This document shows positions 14,429-24,119 of a stretch of 64,000 nt of DNA, piece by piece. Within the stretch, counting starts at the first letter, position 1; each line of letters opens with the position of its first letter. The notes under the pieces are model-generated. The model worked only from the letters and a program-made list of their open reading frames with translations. It did not search any database and was not told the DNA's origin. This DNA comes from Gloeobacter kilaueensis JS1 (GTDB lineage: Bacteria > Cyanobacteriota > Cyanobacteriia > Gloeobacterales > Gloeobacteraceae), in assembly GCF_000484535.1 (NCBI RefSeq), contig NC_022600.1:2418001-2482000 (forward strand). Direction: 5' to 3'. The position numbers and the translations under genes are program-made.

Positions 14429-14930
14429 ATATTTTTACCAGCAGGAGGGAAGATCGAACGAAGAACAGGCAGGCGCAAACGATCGCGAAGCGCTAAATCC
14501 ACGAAACAGTTCAAAGTTTGAGAGAGTCGTGAAACGGGGTGGTAGATGCAGTAGAAGGCAGAGCGGTGGCGGCGATTCGGACAATATTGATTACATTAGC
14601 CTCTCAGCATAGAGGTTTTGGTGGATAAACGTTGAAAATCTGGTAAAAAGTGAAGCAAATGAAAGATCCTGCAGATCCGAAATAAAACTTGCATTCAACC
14701 GTTGAACGTAAAATAAATTTCTTTGTTGCGTGTTATGTAAAATAAACTGCACTTTGCATATTTCTATGGTCTGAACAACACATCAGAGGCGGTGGGGATG
14801 GCGCTACTGGAGCGGTTCTTTTATAGATGTCTTTTGTGATACACAGTCGTTGCCGGGGCTGGAGGGGATAATACGCCTCGGACCGGCTTGTCTCCGCTTC
14901 CATTGTTTTGGTCAGTATGAGGTGTGTGTC
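14429..14930. other. Gene-free AT-richer spacer
   Basis: About 500 bases without a credible gene. The middle (about 14640-14760) is clearly more AT-rich than the surroundings and contains two copies of GTAAAATAAA about 35 bases apart. It must carry the promoters of the TauE gene (leftward) and the VCBS-repeat gene (rightward). I see no tRNA, no repeat array and no strong terminator. Confidence 0.5.
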
Positions 14931-17143
14931 ATGAAGATGCCGCAAGTTCGTGAGCGACTTGCACTATCGTTGCAGCTGCCGCTCTGTCTGGCTGTCAGCG
15001 GTCTCAGCCTGTTGACAGCGCTGGCCCAGCCAACGAAGGCTGCGATCAGCTTTGCGGCTCCACCGACCTTTGCCCTGGGTACCACTCCAAGCGCAGCGGT
15101 CTCTGGTGACTTCAACGGCGACGGCAAGCCGACGTAGCGGTGACCAACGCCGGTTCAGATAATGTCTCAATTTTGATTGGCAAGGGCGGCGGTCAGTTCA
15201 AGCCGGCGCGCAATTTTGCTGTGGGCGATGGTCCGGTTGCCCTGGTGGCAGGCGACTTCGACGCTGACGGCGATCTCGACCTGGCCGTCGCCAACGCCAA
15301 CGCCAGCACCGTCACGCTGTTGCGCAACAACGGCAGTGGCCGCTTTCGCACCGCAGCCACCCTGGCAGTCGGCTCAAAACCCTACAGCATCAAGACCGGT
15401 GACTTCGACGGCGACGGCGATCTCGACCTGGCGACGGCCAATTACGGTGCCAACACCGTCACCGTCATCCTCGATCAGGGCAAAAAGTTCGCTGTGACCC
15501 AGAACGTCTCGACCGGCGGGCAGGGGGCGATTTCGCTGACACCGGGCGACTTCGACGCTGACGGCGATCTCGACCTGGCGGTAAGTAACGGGGCTTACGG
15601 CAGGGGCACGATCACTCGTCTGACCAACAACGGCAGCGGTACCTTCGCAAGCGGCACCCCCGTCTTCAGCTTTTACTTTTACATCACCCCGGTGGCGATC
15701 GTCGCCGGTGACTTTGACGGCGACGGCGACACGGACCTCGCCACCACGACCAGCAGCAACTACTTCTCCGATTACGTCGCGCTGCTACCCAACAACGGCA
15801 GCGGCAGTTTCCCGAGCGTCAGGTACATCCGGACCTCCACAGGGGCATTTTCGATCACTGCAGGCGACATCGACGGCGATGGCGACTCAGACTTTATCGT
15901 GCCGGGGATCATCGACAACACCGTCTCGGTGCTCGTCAACCAGGGTGCTAACAACTTCGTCGAGGGGCTCCCCCGCTTCATGCCCGGCAACAAACCCCGA
16001 GCTGTGGTGCTTGGCCGCTTCGACGACGATGCTCTGCCGGACGTCATCAGCGCCAACAGCGACGGTGTGGCCGCGCTGCTCGTCAACCTCGGCGGCGATA
16101 GCTTGGCCGCACCGCAGGCGCTGAGAGTGTTGGGCGACAATCCGGTGGCGGTCGTGAGCGGCGATATCGACGGCGATGGTGACATCGATCTTTTAAGTGC
16201 AAGTTTCTTTGGCTTTGGCAAAGATGTCACGATCTTCAAAAACCAGGGCAACGCCCAGTTCACAGCCACTGCGCTGCCGGTGGATCAACTCAACGATCTG
16301 AACCTGGCCGATCTAGATAAAGACGGCGATCTCGACTTGGTGACGGTTGGCTCCGGCGGCACGAAAATCCTGCTCAACGACGGCAGCGGCAACTTCAGAT
16401 TGCTATCTACCTTCTCCGGCAGTGCGAACGCCATCGGCACCGGCGATCTCGATAACGATGGAGATCAAGATATCGTTGTCGTCAAAAATTCCAACAATAC
16501 CGTTCAGATATTTCTCAACAACGGCAGCGCTTCCTTCAGCACTGGCCAGAGCACCAGTAGCGGCGGCACCAACCCGAGCGATCTTGTTCTTGGCGACTTC
16601 AATGGCGACGCCAAGTTAGACGTGGCGGTGACCAACCGCAATTCCAACCAAGTCTCTGTCCTGCCCGGTCAGGGCAACGGTACCCTGGGCAGTGCCAGTA
16701 ACTTCAGTGTCGGCAATACGCCCGATGCCCTGGCAGCAGGGGATATAGACAACGACGGCGACCTGGATCTGGTCACAGCCAACAGCTTCACCGACACCCT
16801 GTCGCTGCTCATCAACTCCGGTAGCGGCAGTTTTGGACCGGCCCAGACTTTGAGCGGAGCCGACAACCCGGAAGATGTTGCTTTTGCGGACCTCGACAAC
16901 GACGGCGATCTCGACATTGTTGCTGCCGGCGTGTACGCGGCCACCGTTTTCCAGAATCAGGCTGGTCAGTTCACGCTGCCACCGGTGAACGCGACAGTCG
17001 CCATCAGCAGTACCGGTCTGGCCACAGGCGATCTCGACGGCGACGGCGATCAGGATCTGGCTGTCAGTTCCAGCCTTGTCTTCAGTTCTTCTTATACCGT
17101 CAGTGTCCTGCGCAACCAGCTGGTTCCCAACCCCATCCCCTGA
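14931..17143 (+). pseudogene. Secreted VCBS/FG-GAP repeat protein, frameshifted near its N-terminus
   Basis: A signal peptide (MKMPQVRERLALS, hydrophobic core, cleavage near LAQPTKA) is followed by FG-GAP/VCBS repeats. Each repeat has a calcium-loop core such as GDFDADGDLDLAVAN. The first frame ends at TAG 15135-15137 right inside repeat 1 (GDFNGDGKP then stop). The second frame resumes at once (DVAVTNAGSD) and stays open from 15140 to 17143. Restoring one G at 15131 would join them. Counting both frames there are 14 repeats, enough for two seven-bladed propellers. Either a recent one-base loss inactivated the gene, or this is a sequencing error, or (less likely, no slippery heptamer seen) a frameshift site. 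Function is unknown; proteins of this kind are usually extracellular. Confidence 0.8.
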
Positions 17144-17194: not shown

Positions 17195-17761
17195 ATGCAA
17201 CAGGCAGCGGGCGGGCGAATGCGCTGGACGGCACGGGAGCTGGAATGGTTGCCGGACAATGGCAATCGCTACGAGATAGTCGATGGAGAATTGCTCGTCA
17301 CCCGAGCGCCCCACTGGAAGCACCAGGAAGTCAGCCTGCGCCTCGGTGCCGCCCTGGATGCCTGGTCAAGCCGCACCGGTTTGGGACGGGCGGCGGTAGC
17401 ACCGGGAATCTGCTTCAGCGACGCAGATAACGTGATTCCGGACGTTGTCTGGGTCAGCACCGCCCGCCTGGAAGTTCTGCTCGACGAGGCCGGGCATCTG
17501 AGCGGGGCACCGGAACTGGTGGTGGAGGTGGTTTCTCCCGGCTCCCAAAACGAGCGCCGCGACCGGGAACTCAAGCTCAAGCTCTACTCGCTGCGCGGAG
17601 TACAGGAATACTGGCTGGTCGATCGCACTTTAGAGCAAATCGAAGTTTATCGGCGAGAAGAAGCGATGTTGAAGCTGACCGGTACGTTCCTGGCGGCTGA
17701 AACGCTCACGACTCCCCTGCTGGAGGGGTTTGCCTGTCCGGTTGGTGCTTTGTTTGCCTGA
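17195..17761 (+). CDS. Uma2 family endonuclease-like protein (DUF820)
   Basis: 188-residue member of the PD-(D/E)XK-fold Uma2 family, which is hugely expanded in cyanobacteria and has unknown targets. The core is visible: YEIVDGELLV (catalytic Glu), VIPDVVWV (catalytic Asp), ELVVEVVSPGSQ (E-x-V motif) and the later KLKLYSLRGVQEYWLVD. The C-terminus GFACPVGALFA is the 5' edge of a 96-bp segment found again at 20206. Start ATG follows AGAACAGGCATT; no strong ribosome site. The 51-base gap after the VCBS gene has no terminator. Confidence 0.88.
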   Translation: MQQAAGGRMRWTARELEWLPDNGNRYEIVDGELLVTRAPHWKHQEVSLRLGAALDAWSSRTGLGRAAVAPGICFSDADNVIPDVVWVSTARLEVLLDEAGHLSGAPELVVEVVSPGSQNERRDRELKLKLYSLRGVQEYWLVDRTLEQIEVYRREEAMLKLTGTFLAAETLTTPLLEGFACPVGALFA

Positions 17762-17821
17762 GGGGCAAGTTCAAAATTCGAAGGGTAAAGCACTCTGCGC
17801 GGGATCGAGATCGAGCGCCTG
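17726..17821. repeat. 96-bp imperfect direct repeat, copy A
   Basis: Matches 20206-20301 without gaps, with 14 mismatches by my count (about 85% identity). Copy A covers the last 11 codons of the Uma2 gene and continues into a sequence that, read on the minus strand, is the last 15 or so codons of the adenine methyltransferase whose intact copy ends at 20251. Confidence 0.85.
17771..17821 (-). pseudogene. Remnant of methyltransferase 3' end
   Basis: Read on the minus strand this encodes ALDLDPAQSALPFEF followed by a stop, nearly the same as the C-terminus FDLDPAQSALAFEF of the methyltransferase at 20251-21930. The match stops about 17 codons in; the sequence further upstream on that strand does not resemble the enzyme. 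It is a fragment left by duplication or recombination. Confidence 0.75.
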
Positions 17822-18414
17822 ATTGGGAGAAACCGGTGTTGTCAGAGAAGTTGTCGTGTGTTCTGCCCTTGAGCAGCTTGTGGCAAGTGTATCTCTTCTT
17901 TTAAAACTTTGGCCCTGGGCGGATTGAGATGTACCTGATTTGGGATCTCTCAGTTGTGGATATCCCTTGACCACCGCGACGGATTCTGCTCCCTCGCCTA
18001 CTGGTAGACCACTCGGCGCTGCTTGCGAATCTGGACATCTTCGCCGCGATGGCGTTGTCCTGCTCCCCGAATGGGGGGTCGGGAGTGAGGAACTTCAGGC
18101 GGCTATGATGATGCTCTTTGCTGTACCAGAGCCCGTCTTTCGCTGCCAGTCCTGCAGACGCTGGCTTTTTTTGGTTAGCGGTTTATCTGGAGATTCAGAA
18201 AGCTGACACTTAATCAGCGTGCGCAGCGTGCAGCGTCTGGAGAACTGTCAGTCAATCAGCCCTCAACCCCCAGCGATCAGCTCACTGTGTTCGGCACGAC
18301 CTGGAAATGTTGAGATGGGGCTGTAGAGTGTAGGGTAGGGTGACTGCGCTGGTGGCAGGAGTGGTCCGCCCCGGCAGCCAAAAGTCCCCTCCCTTCCACT
18401 GACAGGAGCAGAAG
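17822..18414. other. Spacer without a credible gene
   Basis: About 590 bases between the methyltransferase remnant and the FG-GAP gene. Short open frames exist (for example 17940-18206, 88 codons) but show no recognisable family and no convincing start. One hairpin plus T-run is listed separately. The string CCCCGAATGGGGGG at about 18065 recurs near 35861 behind lpxB. The region looks like decayed sequence within an accessory patch. Confidence 0.45.
18145..18172 (+). terminator. Possible intrinsic terminator
   Basis: Five-base stem GCCAG / CTGGC with an 11-base loop that itself contains CTGCAG, followed by seven T residues. The gene it would end is not clear, since the preceding sequence holds no firm coding region. 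Confidence 0.4.
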
Positions 18415-20124
18415 ATGTTTCTCCGGCACGGTCTACCTGGCAAGCGCTATGCAGCGGCAACGTCGCTCTACCACACTCGGGGGTGGCTGAGTGTATCGCT
18501 CAGTGTGTGTTGGCTTTTAAGCACGGCGGTGCTGCCACCAGTGGCGAGGGCATTGCCCGTGGAGGACGAGGTGGCGGTGCCAATCAGAGGTGCGGGCTTC
18601 GTCATCAACGGCAGCAATGTGTATGATTCCTCCGGCCTTTCTGTCAGTGGGGCAGGCGATGTCAATGGCGATGGACTGCCAGATGTGATTGTCGGGGCTT
18701 CCGGTGCCTCCCCGAATGGTCAGGCTGCTGCTGGTCGCAGCTACGTAGTCTTTGGCAAGCGCAACGGCCAGCCGGTGGATCTAACTGCCATCGACAGCGG
18801 CAGCAGCCCAGACGGTTTCGTCATCAACGGTAGCCAAGCGGGCGATCAATCCGGCCGCTCTGTCAGTGGGGCGGGGGATGTCAACGGCGATGGACTGGCC
18901 GATGTGATTGTCGGGGCTCCCTCTGCCGACCTGAATGGTCAAACCTCTGTCGGTCGCAGCTACGTGATCTTCGGCAAGCGCAACCTCAAGCCAGTGCAGT
19001 TATCTGCCATTGAAAGCGGCAGCAGCCTGGACGGCTTCGTCATCGACGGCAGCAATGTGAACGATGAAGCTGGCCGCTCTGTCAGTGGGGCAGGCGATGT
19101 CAATGGCGACGGACTGGCCGATGTGATTGTCGCAGCTCCCTATGCCTCCCCCAATAGTCAATTCGAGGCTGGTCGCAGCTACGTGGTCTTTGGCAAGCGC
19201 AACCTCAAGCCAGTGGAGCTATCTGCCATTGAAAGCGGCAGCAGCCTGGACGGCTTCGTCATCGACGGCAGCAATGTGAACGATGAAGCTGGCCGCTCTG
19301 TCAGCAGTGTGGGAGATGTCAACGGCGATGGACTGGCAGACCTCATCGTCGGGGCTTTCCGGGCCTCCCCGAATGGTCAAACCTATGCTGGTAGCAGCTA
19401 CGTGGTCTTCGGCAAGCGCAATCGTAAAGCAGTGGAGCTATCCGTCATAGAAAGCGGCAGCAGCCCAGACGGCTTCGTCATCAACGGCAGCCAAGCGGAC
19501 GATTTCTCTGGCTATTCTGTCAGTGGAGCCGGGGATGTCAACGGCGACGGACTGGCAGACCTCATCGTCGGGGCTGAGGGTGCCGACCCGGAAGAGACTG
19601 GTCGCAGCTACGTGGTCTTCGGCAAGCGCAACACTCAGCCCGTGGAGCTATCTGCCATCGAAAGCGGCACCAGCCGTGGCGGCTTCGTCATCAACGGCAG
19701 CCAGTCATTCGATAGGTCTGGCCGTTCTGTCAGTGGGGCAGGCGATGTCAACGGCGATGGACTGGCTGATGTTATTGTCGGGGCTTTGTACGCCGACCCG
19801 AATGGTCAACCCAATGCTGGTCGCAGCTACGTCATCTTTGGCAAGCGCAACCTCAAGCCAGTGGAGTTATCTGCCATCGAAAGCGGCAGCAGCCTAGACG
19901 GCTTCGTCATCGACGGCAGCCAAGCGGGCGATGAAGCCAGCGTGGTCAGTGGGGCGGGGGATGTCAATGGTGACGGACTGGCAGACCTCATCGTCGGGGC
20001 TCCCTTTGCCGACCCGAATGGTCAAACCTATGCTGGTAGCAGCTACGTGGTCTTCGGCAAGCGCAACCTCAAGCCAGTGGAGCTGGCACAACTGGAAAAG
20101 ACTGGGTCCTCCCCCTCTCCTTGA
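18415..20124 (+). CDS. Secreted FG-GAP (integrin-alpha-like) repeat protein, seven repeats
   Basis: 569 residues. A long basic N-region leads to a hydrophobic signal (WLSVSLSVCWLLSTAVL, cleavage near VARALP). The rest is seven near-identical repeats of about 63-68 residues, each holding SVSGAGDVNGDGLAD (calcium loop), VIVGAP-like and YVVFGKRN. Seven FG-GAP repeats make one closed seven-bladed beta-propeller, as in integrin alpha chains. The seventh repeat is shortened in the blade (GDEASVVSGAGD). DNA copies of neighbouring repeats are almost identical over 60-70 bases, so the gene has grown or been homogenised recently. ATG 18415 follows GACAGGAGCAGAAG. Likely an extracellular or surface protein; ligand unknown. 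Confidence 0.88.
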   Translation: MFLRHGLPGKRYAAATSLYHTRGWLSVSLSVCWLLSTAVLPPVARALPVEDEVAVPIRGAGFVINGSNVYDSSGLSVSGAGDVNGDGLPDVIVGASGASPNGQAAAGRSYVVFGKRNGQPVDLTAIDSGSSPDGFVINGSQAGDQSGRSVSGAGDVNGDGLADVIVGAPSADLNGQTSVGRSYVIFGKRNLKPVQLSAIESGSSLDGFVIDGSNVNDEAGRSVSGAGDVNGDGLADVIVAAPYASPNSQFEAGRSYVVFGKRNLKPVELSAIESGSSLDGFVIDGSNVNDEAGRSVSSVGDVNGDGLADLIVGAFRASPNGQTYAGSSYVVFGKRNRKAVELSVIESGSSPDGFVINGSQADDFSGYSVSGAGDVNGDGLADLIVGAEGADPEETGRSYVVFGKRNTQPVELSAIESGTSRGGFVINGSQSFDRSGRSVSGAGDVNGDGLADVIVGALYADPNGQPNAGRSYVIFGKRNLKPVELSAIESGSSLDGFVIDGSQAGDEASVVSGAGDVNGDGLADLIVGAPFADPNGQTYAGSSYVVFGKRNLKPVELAQLEKTGSSPSP

Positions 20125-20184
20125 GCCGCACCGGAGGATCTGCTAGCTTGCCCAGTTACGGCTCAACTGCTGCTCAAAAAGACA

Positions 20185-20241
20185 GTTTTGCCACCATTGC
20201 CGACAGGGTTTGCCTGTCCGGTGGGTGCGTTGTTTGCTTGA
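20185..20241 (+). pseudogene. Remnant of a Uma2 gene 3' end
   Basis: The frame reads VLPPLPTGFACPVGALFA and stops at TGA 20239-20241, essentially the Uma2 C-terminus seen at 17726-17761. No Uma2 catalytic core precedes it, so it is a truncated leftover lying just before the intact methyltransferase end. Confidence 0.7.
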
Positions 20242-20301
20242 TCGTCGGGCTCAAAATTCAAAGGCCAGAGCACTCTGCGCGGGATCGAGATCGAACGCCT
20301 G
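20206..20301. repeat. 96-bp imperfect direct repeat, copy B
   Basis: Partner of 17726-17821, same orientation, gap-free. Here the Uma2 part is the remnant and the methyltransferase part is functional, the mirror image of copy A. Confidence 0.85.
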
Positions 20302-21930
20302 CCACACCAGCGCGTCCAACTGGCGCTCCAGAGCCGCCACAGGACTGCCCAAGGGCAGGCTGTAGATCTGCTGGGCGAGGCCAACCAGTTGCCGGGACTG
20401 GGGACGATCCGGCCTGGGGAGGGGAAATTTTTCGACGTACTGACTCATGAAGCGGCGGCGACCGGCGTAGAGCTTGTTGTGGAAGCAGTGGTCGTAGAAG
20501 TGGGCGATAAAGCTCGAATTGCCGACTGCGAGTGCCAGCCAGAGTGCATCGCGCTCTGAGGATTTATCGCACCGGAGCCAGTAGCAGTCGCCGTTGACGA
20601 CGCTGCCGGTCTCGTCGAGCCAGAAGGTGGGCTCCTCGACGATGTCGCGAAAGACGAGTTTAGGCGCAGCCCAACCGTCCGGATCCTGGGGAACCCACAA
20701 CTCGTACCACTGGCGGTTGGCTGCTAGTAAATAACTGCGGGCGATAAGAATCTGACGATGTTTTTCGAGGTAGCGGGCGGTGCGGGGATAGGCATCGAGG
20801 GGAACAGCCACCCGCCGCCCTGCGACGACCTGGTGGGGATAGACGATCTGCCAGGCGGTCTGGGAATTGGCTCGAAAGCGCCCGGCTCCGTGGTGGGTGG
20901 CGAGGGGTTTAAGCAGTTCCGGGCGCTCCTCCGGCGGCCATTCCTGCCAGTCGGAGCGGATGAAGACACTGTCGGCACAGGTTTTTACGCCGACGCGAAT
21001 TTTGCCCAACTCGCCAAAAGTCTTCCAGGTCCGGCTGCGCACTCTAGCGAGCCAGTGCTCAGAGTTGCCGGTCGTCATCCGCCACAGCGCACCGGGGGGA
21101 TCCGGCGCGAGCGTGCCGTGGCGCACCTCAAAGCGGCGGCCATCCGTCACCTCGACGACGCCATCCAGATTCAGAGCGGCCAGGGGGCTGGCTGCACAGC
21201 CGGTAGCCGCTGCGCTCGTCCGGTAGATCGAACTGAAGGGAGTGTCCGCTGTCGTGATCGGGCTGTCTGTTCCTTCGAGGAGCACGACCGCAGGCAGCAC
21301 CGCCGCCGCAAATAGCTGCGTGTCCCCCAGATCCCAGATCGCCCGCAGTTGAAAGCGCTCGCTCAGGGCGCGGCGCACACTCGCCCCAGCCCGGATGCTC
21401 ATGAAGCGATTGGAGAGAATCAGCCCGGCAACGCCCGTCGGAGCAAGCAGCCCGGCGATGCCCAGAACGAACGCCTGGTAAAGATCGAGGCGGCCCGTCA
21501 ACCCGAAGCGCCGGGCCAGGGCACGGGACTGGTCGCTTCCGAGAATCTGGGTGCGGACGTAGGGCGGATTGGCGATCACGATGTCGAAGGGGCCAGCCGC
21601 CGTCGGCTTCTCGCTGGCGACATCGAGAAAGCAGGTTCCTTCGACGGTAAGAACAGCCGGGGCGAGGCGTGCCCGCGCCCGCTCGCAGGCGGCTGTGTCC
21701 GTCTCGTAGCCGTGGAGTGTCACCCCGGCGGCCTCGGAGCCGAGTTTGGCAAGCAGGCTTACGAGCAACTGGCCGTCGCCCAGTGCCGGATCGAGAATGC
21801 GCAGGGGCCGTTTCCGCTCGCCGGGCAGATAGCGGACGATTTGCTCGGCGACAAAGTCGGCAAGTGCTGCCGGGGTGTAGGTCGCTCCCTGTGCTTTGTG
21901 AAAATCCGGTGACTGGAAGCGGCCCCCCAC
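20251..21930 (-). CDS. Eco57I/TaqI-type N6-adenine DNA methyltransferase
   Basis: 559-residue class I methyltransferase acting on adenine in DNA. The cofactor region has ILDPALGDGQLL (motif I) and HGYETD (motif II). The catalytic motif IV is NPPYVR near residue 140. The C-terminal half (from about 330) resembles the TaqI-like specificity domain, with VRVGVKTCADSVFI and YAGRRRFMSQYVEKFPLP. It is too short to be a type IIG fusion enzyme, and no restriction gene lies beside it, so it looks like an orphan methyltransferase. It begins 3 bases after the uvrB stop and is probably co-transcribed with it. Its own 3' end is duplicated at 17771. Confidence 0.87.
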   Translation of the reverse strand: MGGRFQSPDFHKAQGATYTPAALADFVAEQIVRYLPGERKRPLRILDPALGDGQLLVSLLAKLGSEAAGVTLHGYETDTAACERARARLAPAVLTVEGTCFLDVASEKPTAAGPFDIVIANPPYVRTQILGSDQSRALARRFGLTGRLDLYQAFVLGIAGLLAPTGVAGLILSNRFMSIRAGASVRRALSERFQLRAIWDLGDTQLFAAAVLPAVVLLEGTDSPITTADTPFSSIYRTSAAATGCAASPLAALNLDGVVEVTDGRRFEVRHGTLAPDPPGALWRMTTGNSEHWLARVRSRTWKTFGELGKIRVGVKTCADSVFIRSDWQEWPPEERPELLKPLATHHGAGRFRANSQTAWQIVYPHQVVAGRRVAVPLDAYPRTARYLEKHRQILIARSYLLAANRQWYELWVPQDPDGWAAPKLVFRDIVEEPTFWLDETGSVVNGDCYWLRCDKSSERDALWLALAVGNSSFIAHFYDHCFHNKLYAGRRRFMSQYVEKFPLPRPDRPQSRQLVGLAQQIYSLPLGSPVAALERQLDALVWQAFDLDPAQSALAFEF

Positions 21931-21933
21931 GCG

Positions 21934-23976
<2,043 letters not shown>

Positions 23977-24119
23977 ATGTGTCCAAAAGTTCACATCACC
24001 TGGCTATTGTAGCCGATGGTGGGCCAGGGCGGTGGCGATTGAGCGGGATCGTTTCGCGGCGGTCGTGCTTCATGTTAACGTTTTGGGTGCTGAATTTTCC
24101 AACGGACGTTAAAGCCGGT

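What the first reader, a model, noticed from the sequence alone, without database searches (positions are those of the whole stretch)
17726..20301. A 96-bp duplication brackets the FG-GAP gene and leaves mirrored gene remnants
17726-17821 and 20206-20301 align without gaps (14 mismatches). Left copy: real Uma2 end plus methyltransferase remnant. Right copy: Uma2 remnant plus real methyltransferase end. The simplest history is an ancestral tail-to-tail Uma2 / methyltransferase pair whose junction was duplicated when about 2.4 kb carrying the FG-GAP gene entered, or two such loci that recombined. It suggests an insertion route not based on a recognisable transposase.
Basis: partly seen in the sequence, partly recalled or inferred. 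Interest (0 to 1): 0.55.

Follow-up and report, generated by a model that had tools for sequence, protein, structure and literature searches.

The report
Duplicated gene tails at scrambled locus
In a cyanobacterium, a 96-base stretch holding the tail ends of a putative nuclease gene and a DNA-methylating gene occurs twice, on either side of an unrelated gene and the remains of a jumping gene; it looks like an ordinary scar from two diverged copies of one locus, not a new way of inserting genes.

Summary
17726-17821 and 20206-20301 align without gaps, 82 of 96 identical, and are the only two copies found in the genome, which by length is Gloeobacter kilaueensis JS1. Each copy holds the last 11 codons plus stop of a Uma2 gene, a 9-base gap, and the last 16 codons plus stop of a convergent methyltransferase (MTase).

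A transposase is recognisable: 18137-17911 (minus) is the broken C-terminus of an IS3-family transposase (best E 1e-15), with an IS-end-like stretch at about 17834-17859, 12 bases past the left copy. Mismatches are 6 of 9 in the gap but 8 of 87 in coding, with only 2 changed residues: better explained by two versions that diverged while both gene pairs were intact than by duplication at insertion, although the gap is too diverged for either model. FG-GAP homologues elsewhere lack these brackets. No undisrupted Uma2/MTase junction was found; in 7 of 7 relatives opened the MTase lies tail-to-tail with a restriction enzyme gene instead. An ordinary rearrangement scar.

The parts
17195..17761 (+). 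Uma2 gene (putative restriction endonuclease family), intact, 188 aa
   Evidence: Pfam PF05685 E 9e-37; PADLOC PDC-S03 model E 1.3e-26; 81% identical gene in G001
17726..17821 (.). Left copy of the 96-bp unit
17762..17770 (.). 9-nt gap between the two stop codons, left copy; 6 of 9 differ from the right copy
17771..17821 (-). Remnant of a second MTase gene: last 16 codons and stop
   Evidence: no further extension above shuffles
17834..17859 (-). IS-end-like stretch belonging to the IS3-family remnant
   Evidence: three IS end sequences match best here, scores 23-28 against shuffle maxima 26-27, so weak one by one, but all at the same place just beyond the transposase remnant
17911..18137 (-). 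IS3-family transposase C-terminal remnant, frameshifted, with two stops
   Evidence: tblastn of the two pieces joined: 52% over 94% of the query, E 1e-15, in plasmids; aligned to four plasmid homologues; no Pfam hit for the separate pieces
18415..20124 (+). FG-GAP repeat protein gene, 569 aa, between the two copies
   Evidence: Pfam PF01839 E 4e-63; eight other matches at 59-68% identity in four Gloeobacter genomes
20206..20301 (.). Right copy of the 96-bp unit
20206..20241 (+). Uma2 tail remnant, last 11 codons and stop
   Evidence: an in-frame continuation upstream is not significant by itself (49 of 500 shuffles as good)
20242..20250 (.). 9-nt gap, right copy
20251..21930 (-). N6-adenine DNA methyltransferase, M.BseCI-like, full length, 559 aa
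   Evidence: phmmer to M.BseCI 7qw5 E 5e-115 over residues 11-550; PADLOC PDLC03226 E 4e-171
21934..23994 (-). uvrB, the edge of the block conserved in the other Gloeobacter genomes
   Evidence: 89% identical in G001-G003, with the same genes on its 5' side

Best explanation
The two 96-bp copies are the surviving overlap of two diverged versions of one tail-to-tail Uma2/MTase gene pair (an old duplication, or a resident copy plus one imported from a related lineage). The left version kept Uma2 and lost its MTase down to the last 16 codons; the right version kept the MTase and lost its Uma2 down to the last 11 codons. Between them lie an IS3-family element reduced to its right end and a member of a dispersed FG-GAP gene family. 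Shown: the two copies, their gene content, the IS3 remnant, the mostly silent coding divergence, the dispersed FG-GAP family. Inferred: that both pairs were once complete, that IS-associated deletion and rejoining removed the rest, and that the repeat itself has no function.
For: Uma2 tail: 3 of 3 differing codons silent; MTase tail: 2 of 4 silent. Coding 8 of 87 differ against 6 of 9 in the gap of unchanged length (Fisher p 2e-4). Given 8 coding mismatches, at most 2 changed residues has P 0.69 (omega 0.1) or 0.35 (omega 0.2) if both copies stayed intact, against 0.036-0.038 if one copy of each gene was dead from the start. The IS3 remnant lies beside the left copy. The FG-GAP homologues compared share the gene but not the flanks. 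On the 36 Uma2 bases the two copies agree at 33, while they agree at 24-29 with four Uma2 tails from the other three Gloeobacter genomes (the other Uma2 paralogues of the own genome were not compared).
Against: No complete second Uma2/MTase pair and no intact junction was found. The 9-nt gap is too diverged for this model as well: the joint pattern is reached in at most 0.8% of simulations (1.3% for a looser window around the observed values), although in 0 of 6000 at each of nine rates under duplication at insertion. Only 96 bases carry the signal. The 12 bases between the left copy and the IS end are unexplained, and the IS end match is weak by score.
Confidence: 0.55

Rival explanations
1. 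Insertion with long target duplication: one Uma2/MTase junction was copied when about 2.4 kb (IS3 element plus FG-GAP gene) entered, as described for restriction-modification genes in Helicobacter, and the dead halves have decayed since.
For: Geometry fits: two direct copies, insert between them, real gene ends on the outer sides; insertions with long duplications linked to restriction-modification genes are in print (passages in PMC1643837; PMC3031569; PMC3154945).
Against: Too few changed residues for dead copies (P 0.036-0.038); joint pattern 0 of 6000 at each of nine rates. In the passages seen the restriction-modification genes are the insert; here the MTase is part of the flank.
Confidence: 0.2
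2. IS3-mediated rearrangement alone: the IS element sat in one MTase tail, and recombination between IS copies or a one-ended transposition joined two places that each held a piece of the junction, carrying the FG-GAP gene along.
For: IS3 remnant beside the left copy; ten rve_3 integrase-core matches in the genome, nine over the cut-off; uvrB marks a synteny break.
Against: No IS end is detected near 20206; no relative of this remnant among the six of ten own-genome rve_3 loci compared. It still needs a source for the second junction copy.
Confidence: 0.18
3. The 96 bp is a functional element (terminator or recombination site) kept at both places.
For: A 26-base run without mismatch within the MTase tail.
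Against: Only two copies found in the genome, no full match in 38 other genomes; no unusual folding of the right copy (z +1.36; the left copy was not folded); no terminator-like site inside either copy; both halves are explained by coding.
Confidence: 0.03

Closest known systems
Insertion with long target duplication linked to restriction-modification genes (Nobusato et al. 2000, known here only through passages of citing papers)
   Same: Long direct repeats bracket an insert at a locus with a DNA methyltransferase gene
   Different: Here the MTase belongs to the repeated flank, the insert holds an FG-GAP gene and an IS remnant, and the repeats show coding-constrained divergence
BseCI-type restriction-modification system (M.BseCI, PDB 7qw5)
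   Same: The MTase aligns over nearly its whole length with M.BseCI; its 3' end faces the 3' end of a convergent gene
   Different: The restriction enzyme found beside the MTase in 7 of 7 relatives opened gave no match in this genome; a Uma2 tail stands in its place
IS3-family insertion sequences
   Same: C-terminus of the transposase and an IS-end-like stretch beyond it
   Different: Only about 300 bp remain; left end and most of the transposase are gone

Membership tests
Insertion with long target duplication | Long direct repeat on both sides of an insert | tested here: met
   96 bp, 82 identical
Insertion with long target duplication | Related genome with an empty single-copy target | tested here: inconclusive
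   None found: no full match in 38 other genomes; MTase at E 1e-60 in 2 of 385 other phylum genomes, both beside a restriction enzyme gene. The other Gloeobacter genomes lack the MTase, so no close empty site could be judged
Insertion with long target duplication | Repeats diverge neutrally in the dead halves | tested here: inconclusive
   P 0.036-0.038 against it from coding sites, on 87 bases
IS3-family element | IS3-type transposase | tested here: met
   C-terminal remnant, E 1e-15, aligned to four plasmid homologues, one of them annotated as IS3 family transposase
IS3-family element | Both terminal inverted repeats | tested here: not met
   One end-like stretch at 17834-17859; no left end in 17601-20500
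BseCI-type restriction-modification system | M.BseCI-like methyltransferase | tested here: met
   E 5e-115
BseCI-type restriction-modification system | Cognate restriction enzyme gene | tested here: not met
   No match in own genome with two homologues as query; the second query finds its gene in G155 and G352
BseCI-type restriction-modification system | Methylation of ATCGAT | not testable with these tools
   Needs methylation-aware sequencing; the site is recalled, not from a call

The most novel reading that the evidence does not exclude
The Uma2 nuclease replaced the lost restriction enzyme as tail-to-tail partner of a BseCI-like methyltransferase, and the new pair was selected as a unit in at least two diverged versions, of which this locus is a fused relic; Uma2 would then act as a restriction partner.
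Probability: 0.08. Interest if true: 0.5.

Novelty: new member of a known kind. Interest (0 to 1): 0.18.

Why it matters
It shows how far a pair of short gene tails can be read: the split between silent, residue-changing and gap mismatches speaks to whether copies diverged as live genes or as dead scars. It removes a claimed transposase-free insertion route and leaves an orphan BseCI-like methyltransferase without its restriction enzyme, beside the tail of a putative Uma2 nuclease, as the one point worth a bench look.

Tried and rejected
Extension of homology beyond the 96 bp: nothing above shuffles. Protein-level continuation of the right remnant: for the 27 residues upstream of the unit, 49 of 500 shuffles score as well with a Uma2 profile and 57 of 500 with a profile of the lost restriction enzyme's tail, so undecided; with the 11 shared residues included the numbers are 0 of 500 and 4 of 500. 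In an earlier pairwise test five restriction-enzyme tails gave 0.008-0.51; six of eight Uma2 rows there were misoriented and are not used. One search returned no scores because of the script and was repeated. FG-GAP gene as a mobile unit bracketed by 96-bp copies: no flank match between the window and the five homologues compared better than E 0.06. FG-GAP gene as old neighbour of uvrB, suggested by G001 where a homologue lies 16 kb away: the genes between have no match in the window, and no FG-GAP match lies near uvrB in G002 and G003. Functional repeat: rejected. 17762-18300 against plasmid DNA: no match. MTase in viral contigs: none. Pfam on the separate transposase pieces: no hit; the match came from tblastn.

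Limits: one search used peptide patterns and finds close relatives only. Of 12 plasmid records covering at least 80% of the MTase 3 were opened. Searches scored only part of the first-look candidates in some genomes. One search's output was cut and only its blastn part was used. The three pieces of the FG-GAP homologue in G003 were not in the flank comparison.

Full report
What is there. The window lies at 2418001-2482000 of a single 4,724,791-bp contig. That length equals the published size of Gloeobacter kilaueensis JS1, and G001's 4,659,019 equals G. violaceus PCC 7421 (table passage seen in PMC3806779). The 96-bp pair is confirmed: 82 of 96 identical, no gaps, two copies in the genome, no extension beyond the edges. 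Each copy carries the end of Uma2 (11 codons and stop), 9 bases, and the end of a convergent methyltransferase (16 codons and stop). Uma2 (17195-17761) and the MTase (20251-21930) are full-length genes.

The transposase. The bases between the left copy and the FG-GAP gene contain, on the minus strand, the C-terminus of an IS3-family transposase broken by a frameshift and two stops (18137-17911). Queried as two joined pieces it matches 756 plasmid records at E up to 10; the best covers 94% at 52% identity with E 1e-15, and one of the 20 listed is annotated as IS3 family transposase. Four plasmid homologues align at 50-52%. Comparison of plasmid copies in different sites places the end of such elements at [T]CGGCGGTTGTC or [T]CGGCGTTTTTC, and the matching stretch in the window is about 17834-17859. 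The scores of that match are near the shuffle maxima, but three different IS end sequences all point to this one place, just beyond the transposase remnant. No left end was found in 17601-20500. So the claim of a route without a recognisable transposase does not hold, though the IS is not shown to have moved the FG-GAP gene.

How the copies diverged. Mismatches are 6 of 9 in the gap and 8 of 87 in coding sequence (Fisher p 2e-4). Uma2: 3 differing codons, all silent. MTase: 4 differing codons, 2 silent. With 8 coding mismatches, 2 or fewer changed residues occurs in 3.6-3.8% of simulations if one copy of each gene was dead since duplication, and in 35-69% if both were intact; if both were neutral, in 0.6%. 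The evidence favours two diverged live versions that were later cut and joined, but it rests on 96 bases.

Relatives. Of 38 other genomes in the relatives set, none gave a full match to the 96-bp unit; the matches in G001 and G002 cover the Uma2 tail, and those in G003 and G036 are 28-base hits elsewhere in the query. The MTase has no close match in the three other Gloeobacter genomes (none in two, 30% over part in G003). Of 386 phylum genomes including the own one, 3 have it at E 1e-60 or better. In both others, in two contigs of the species collection and in three opened plasmids the MTase lies tail-to-tail with a restriction enzyme gene, 7 of 7; six of these partners are 54-68% identical to the seventh, in L097, and the gene ends overlap by 8-27 bases in six and lie 4 bases apart in one. 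Queries with that enzyme gave no match in this genome or in G001-G004, while the same query finds it in G155 and G352. So the Uma2/MTase junction is known to me only from this locus.

The FG-GAP gene. It has matches in all four Gloeobacter genomes, two further ones in its own. The five homologues compared with the window share no flanking DNA with it (nothing better than E 0.06), and the 96-bp unit is not found again in the own genome. It is a passenger, not a unit defined by the 96-bp brackets. To the right, uvrB onward is conserved in G001-G003. To the left, the genes at about 6.7-12.5 kb form blocks that are conserved but lie elsewhere in those genomes. So the locus sits at a synteny break.

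Verdict. Observation confirmed; the mechanism is most likely ordinary: a relic of two diverged versions of a gene pair at a rearranged, IS-scarred place. [quoted passage not shown] the original paper was not seen), which remains a rival at about 0.2. Four searches of the paper library were made, none for this very repeat; the G. kilaueensis genome paper has no occurrence of FG-GAP, Uma2, methyltransferase or restriction in its main text.

Noticed in passing
14850-17143: The FG-GAP gene left of Uma2 seems frameshifted: a 95-aa ORF with a partial FG-GAP repeat at its end (14850-15137) is followed in another frame by a 667-aa FG-GAP ORF (15140-17143).
   Followed up: partly
20251-21930: The MTase is an orphan M.BseCI-like enzyme: its usual restriction enzyme gave no match in the genome. 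ATCGAT occurs 29 times in the window against 43 from a Markov estimate; two of three other hexamers checked are also somewhat low, so this is weak.
   Followed up: partly
21934: The 3' side of uvrB differs among the four Gloeobacter genomes: no pairwise blastn match at E 1e-3 among stretches of 5.5-16 kb, while the 5' side is conserved.
   Followed up: partly
L057 11182-11772; L114 6478-6768; L116 7008-7904: ISL3-type transposase genes or fragments lie within 1 kb of FG-GAP homologues in two other Gloeobacter genomes.
   Followed up: no
L068 3863-5584: A GmrSD-type restriction gene lies about 2 kb from another FG-GAP homologue of the same genome.
   Followed up: no
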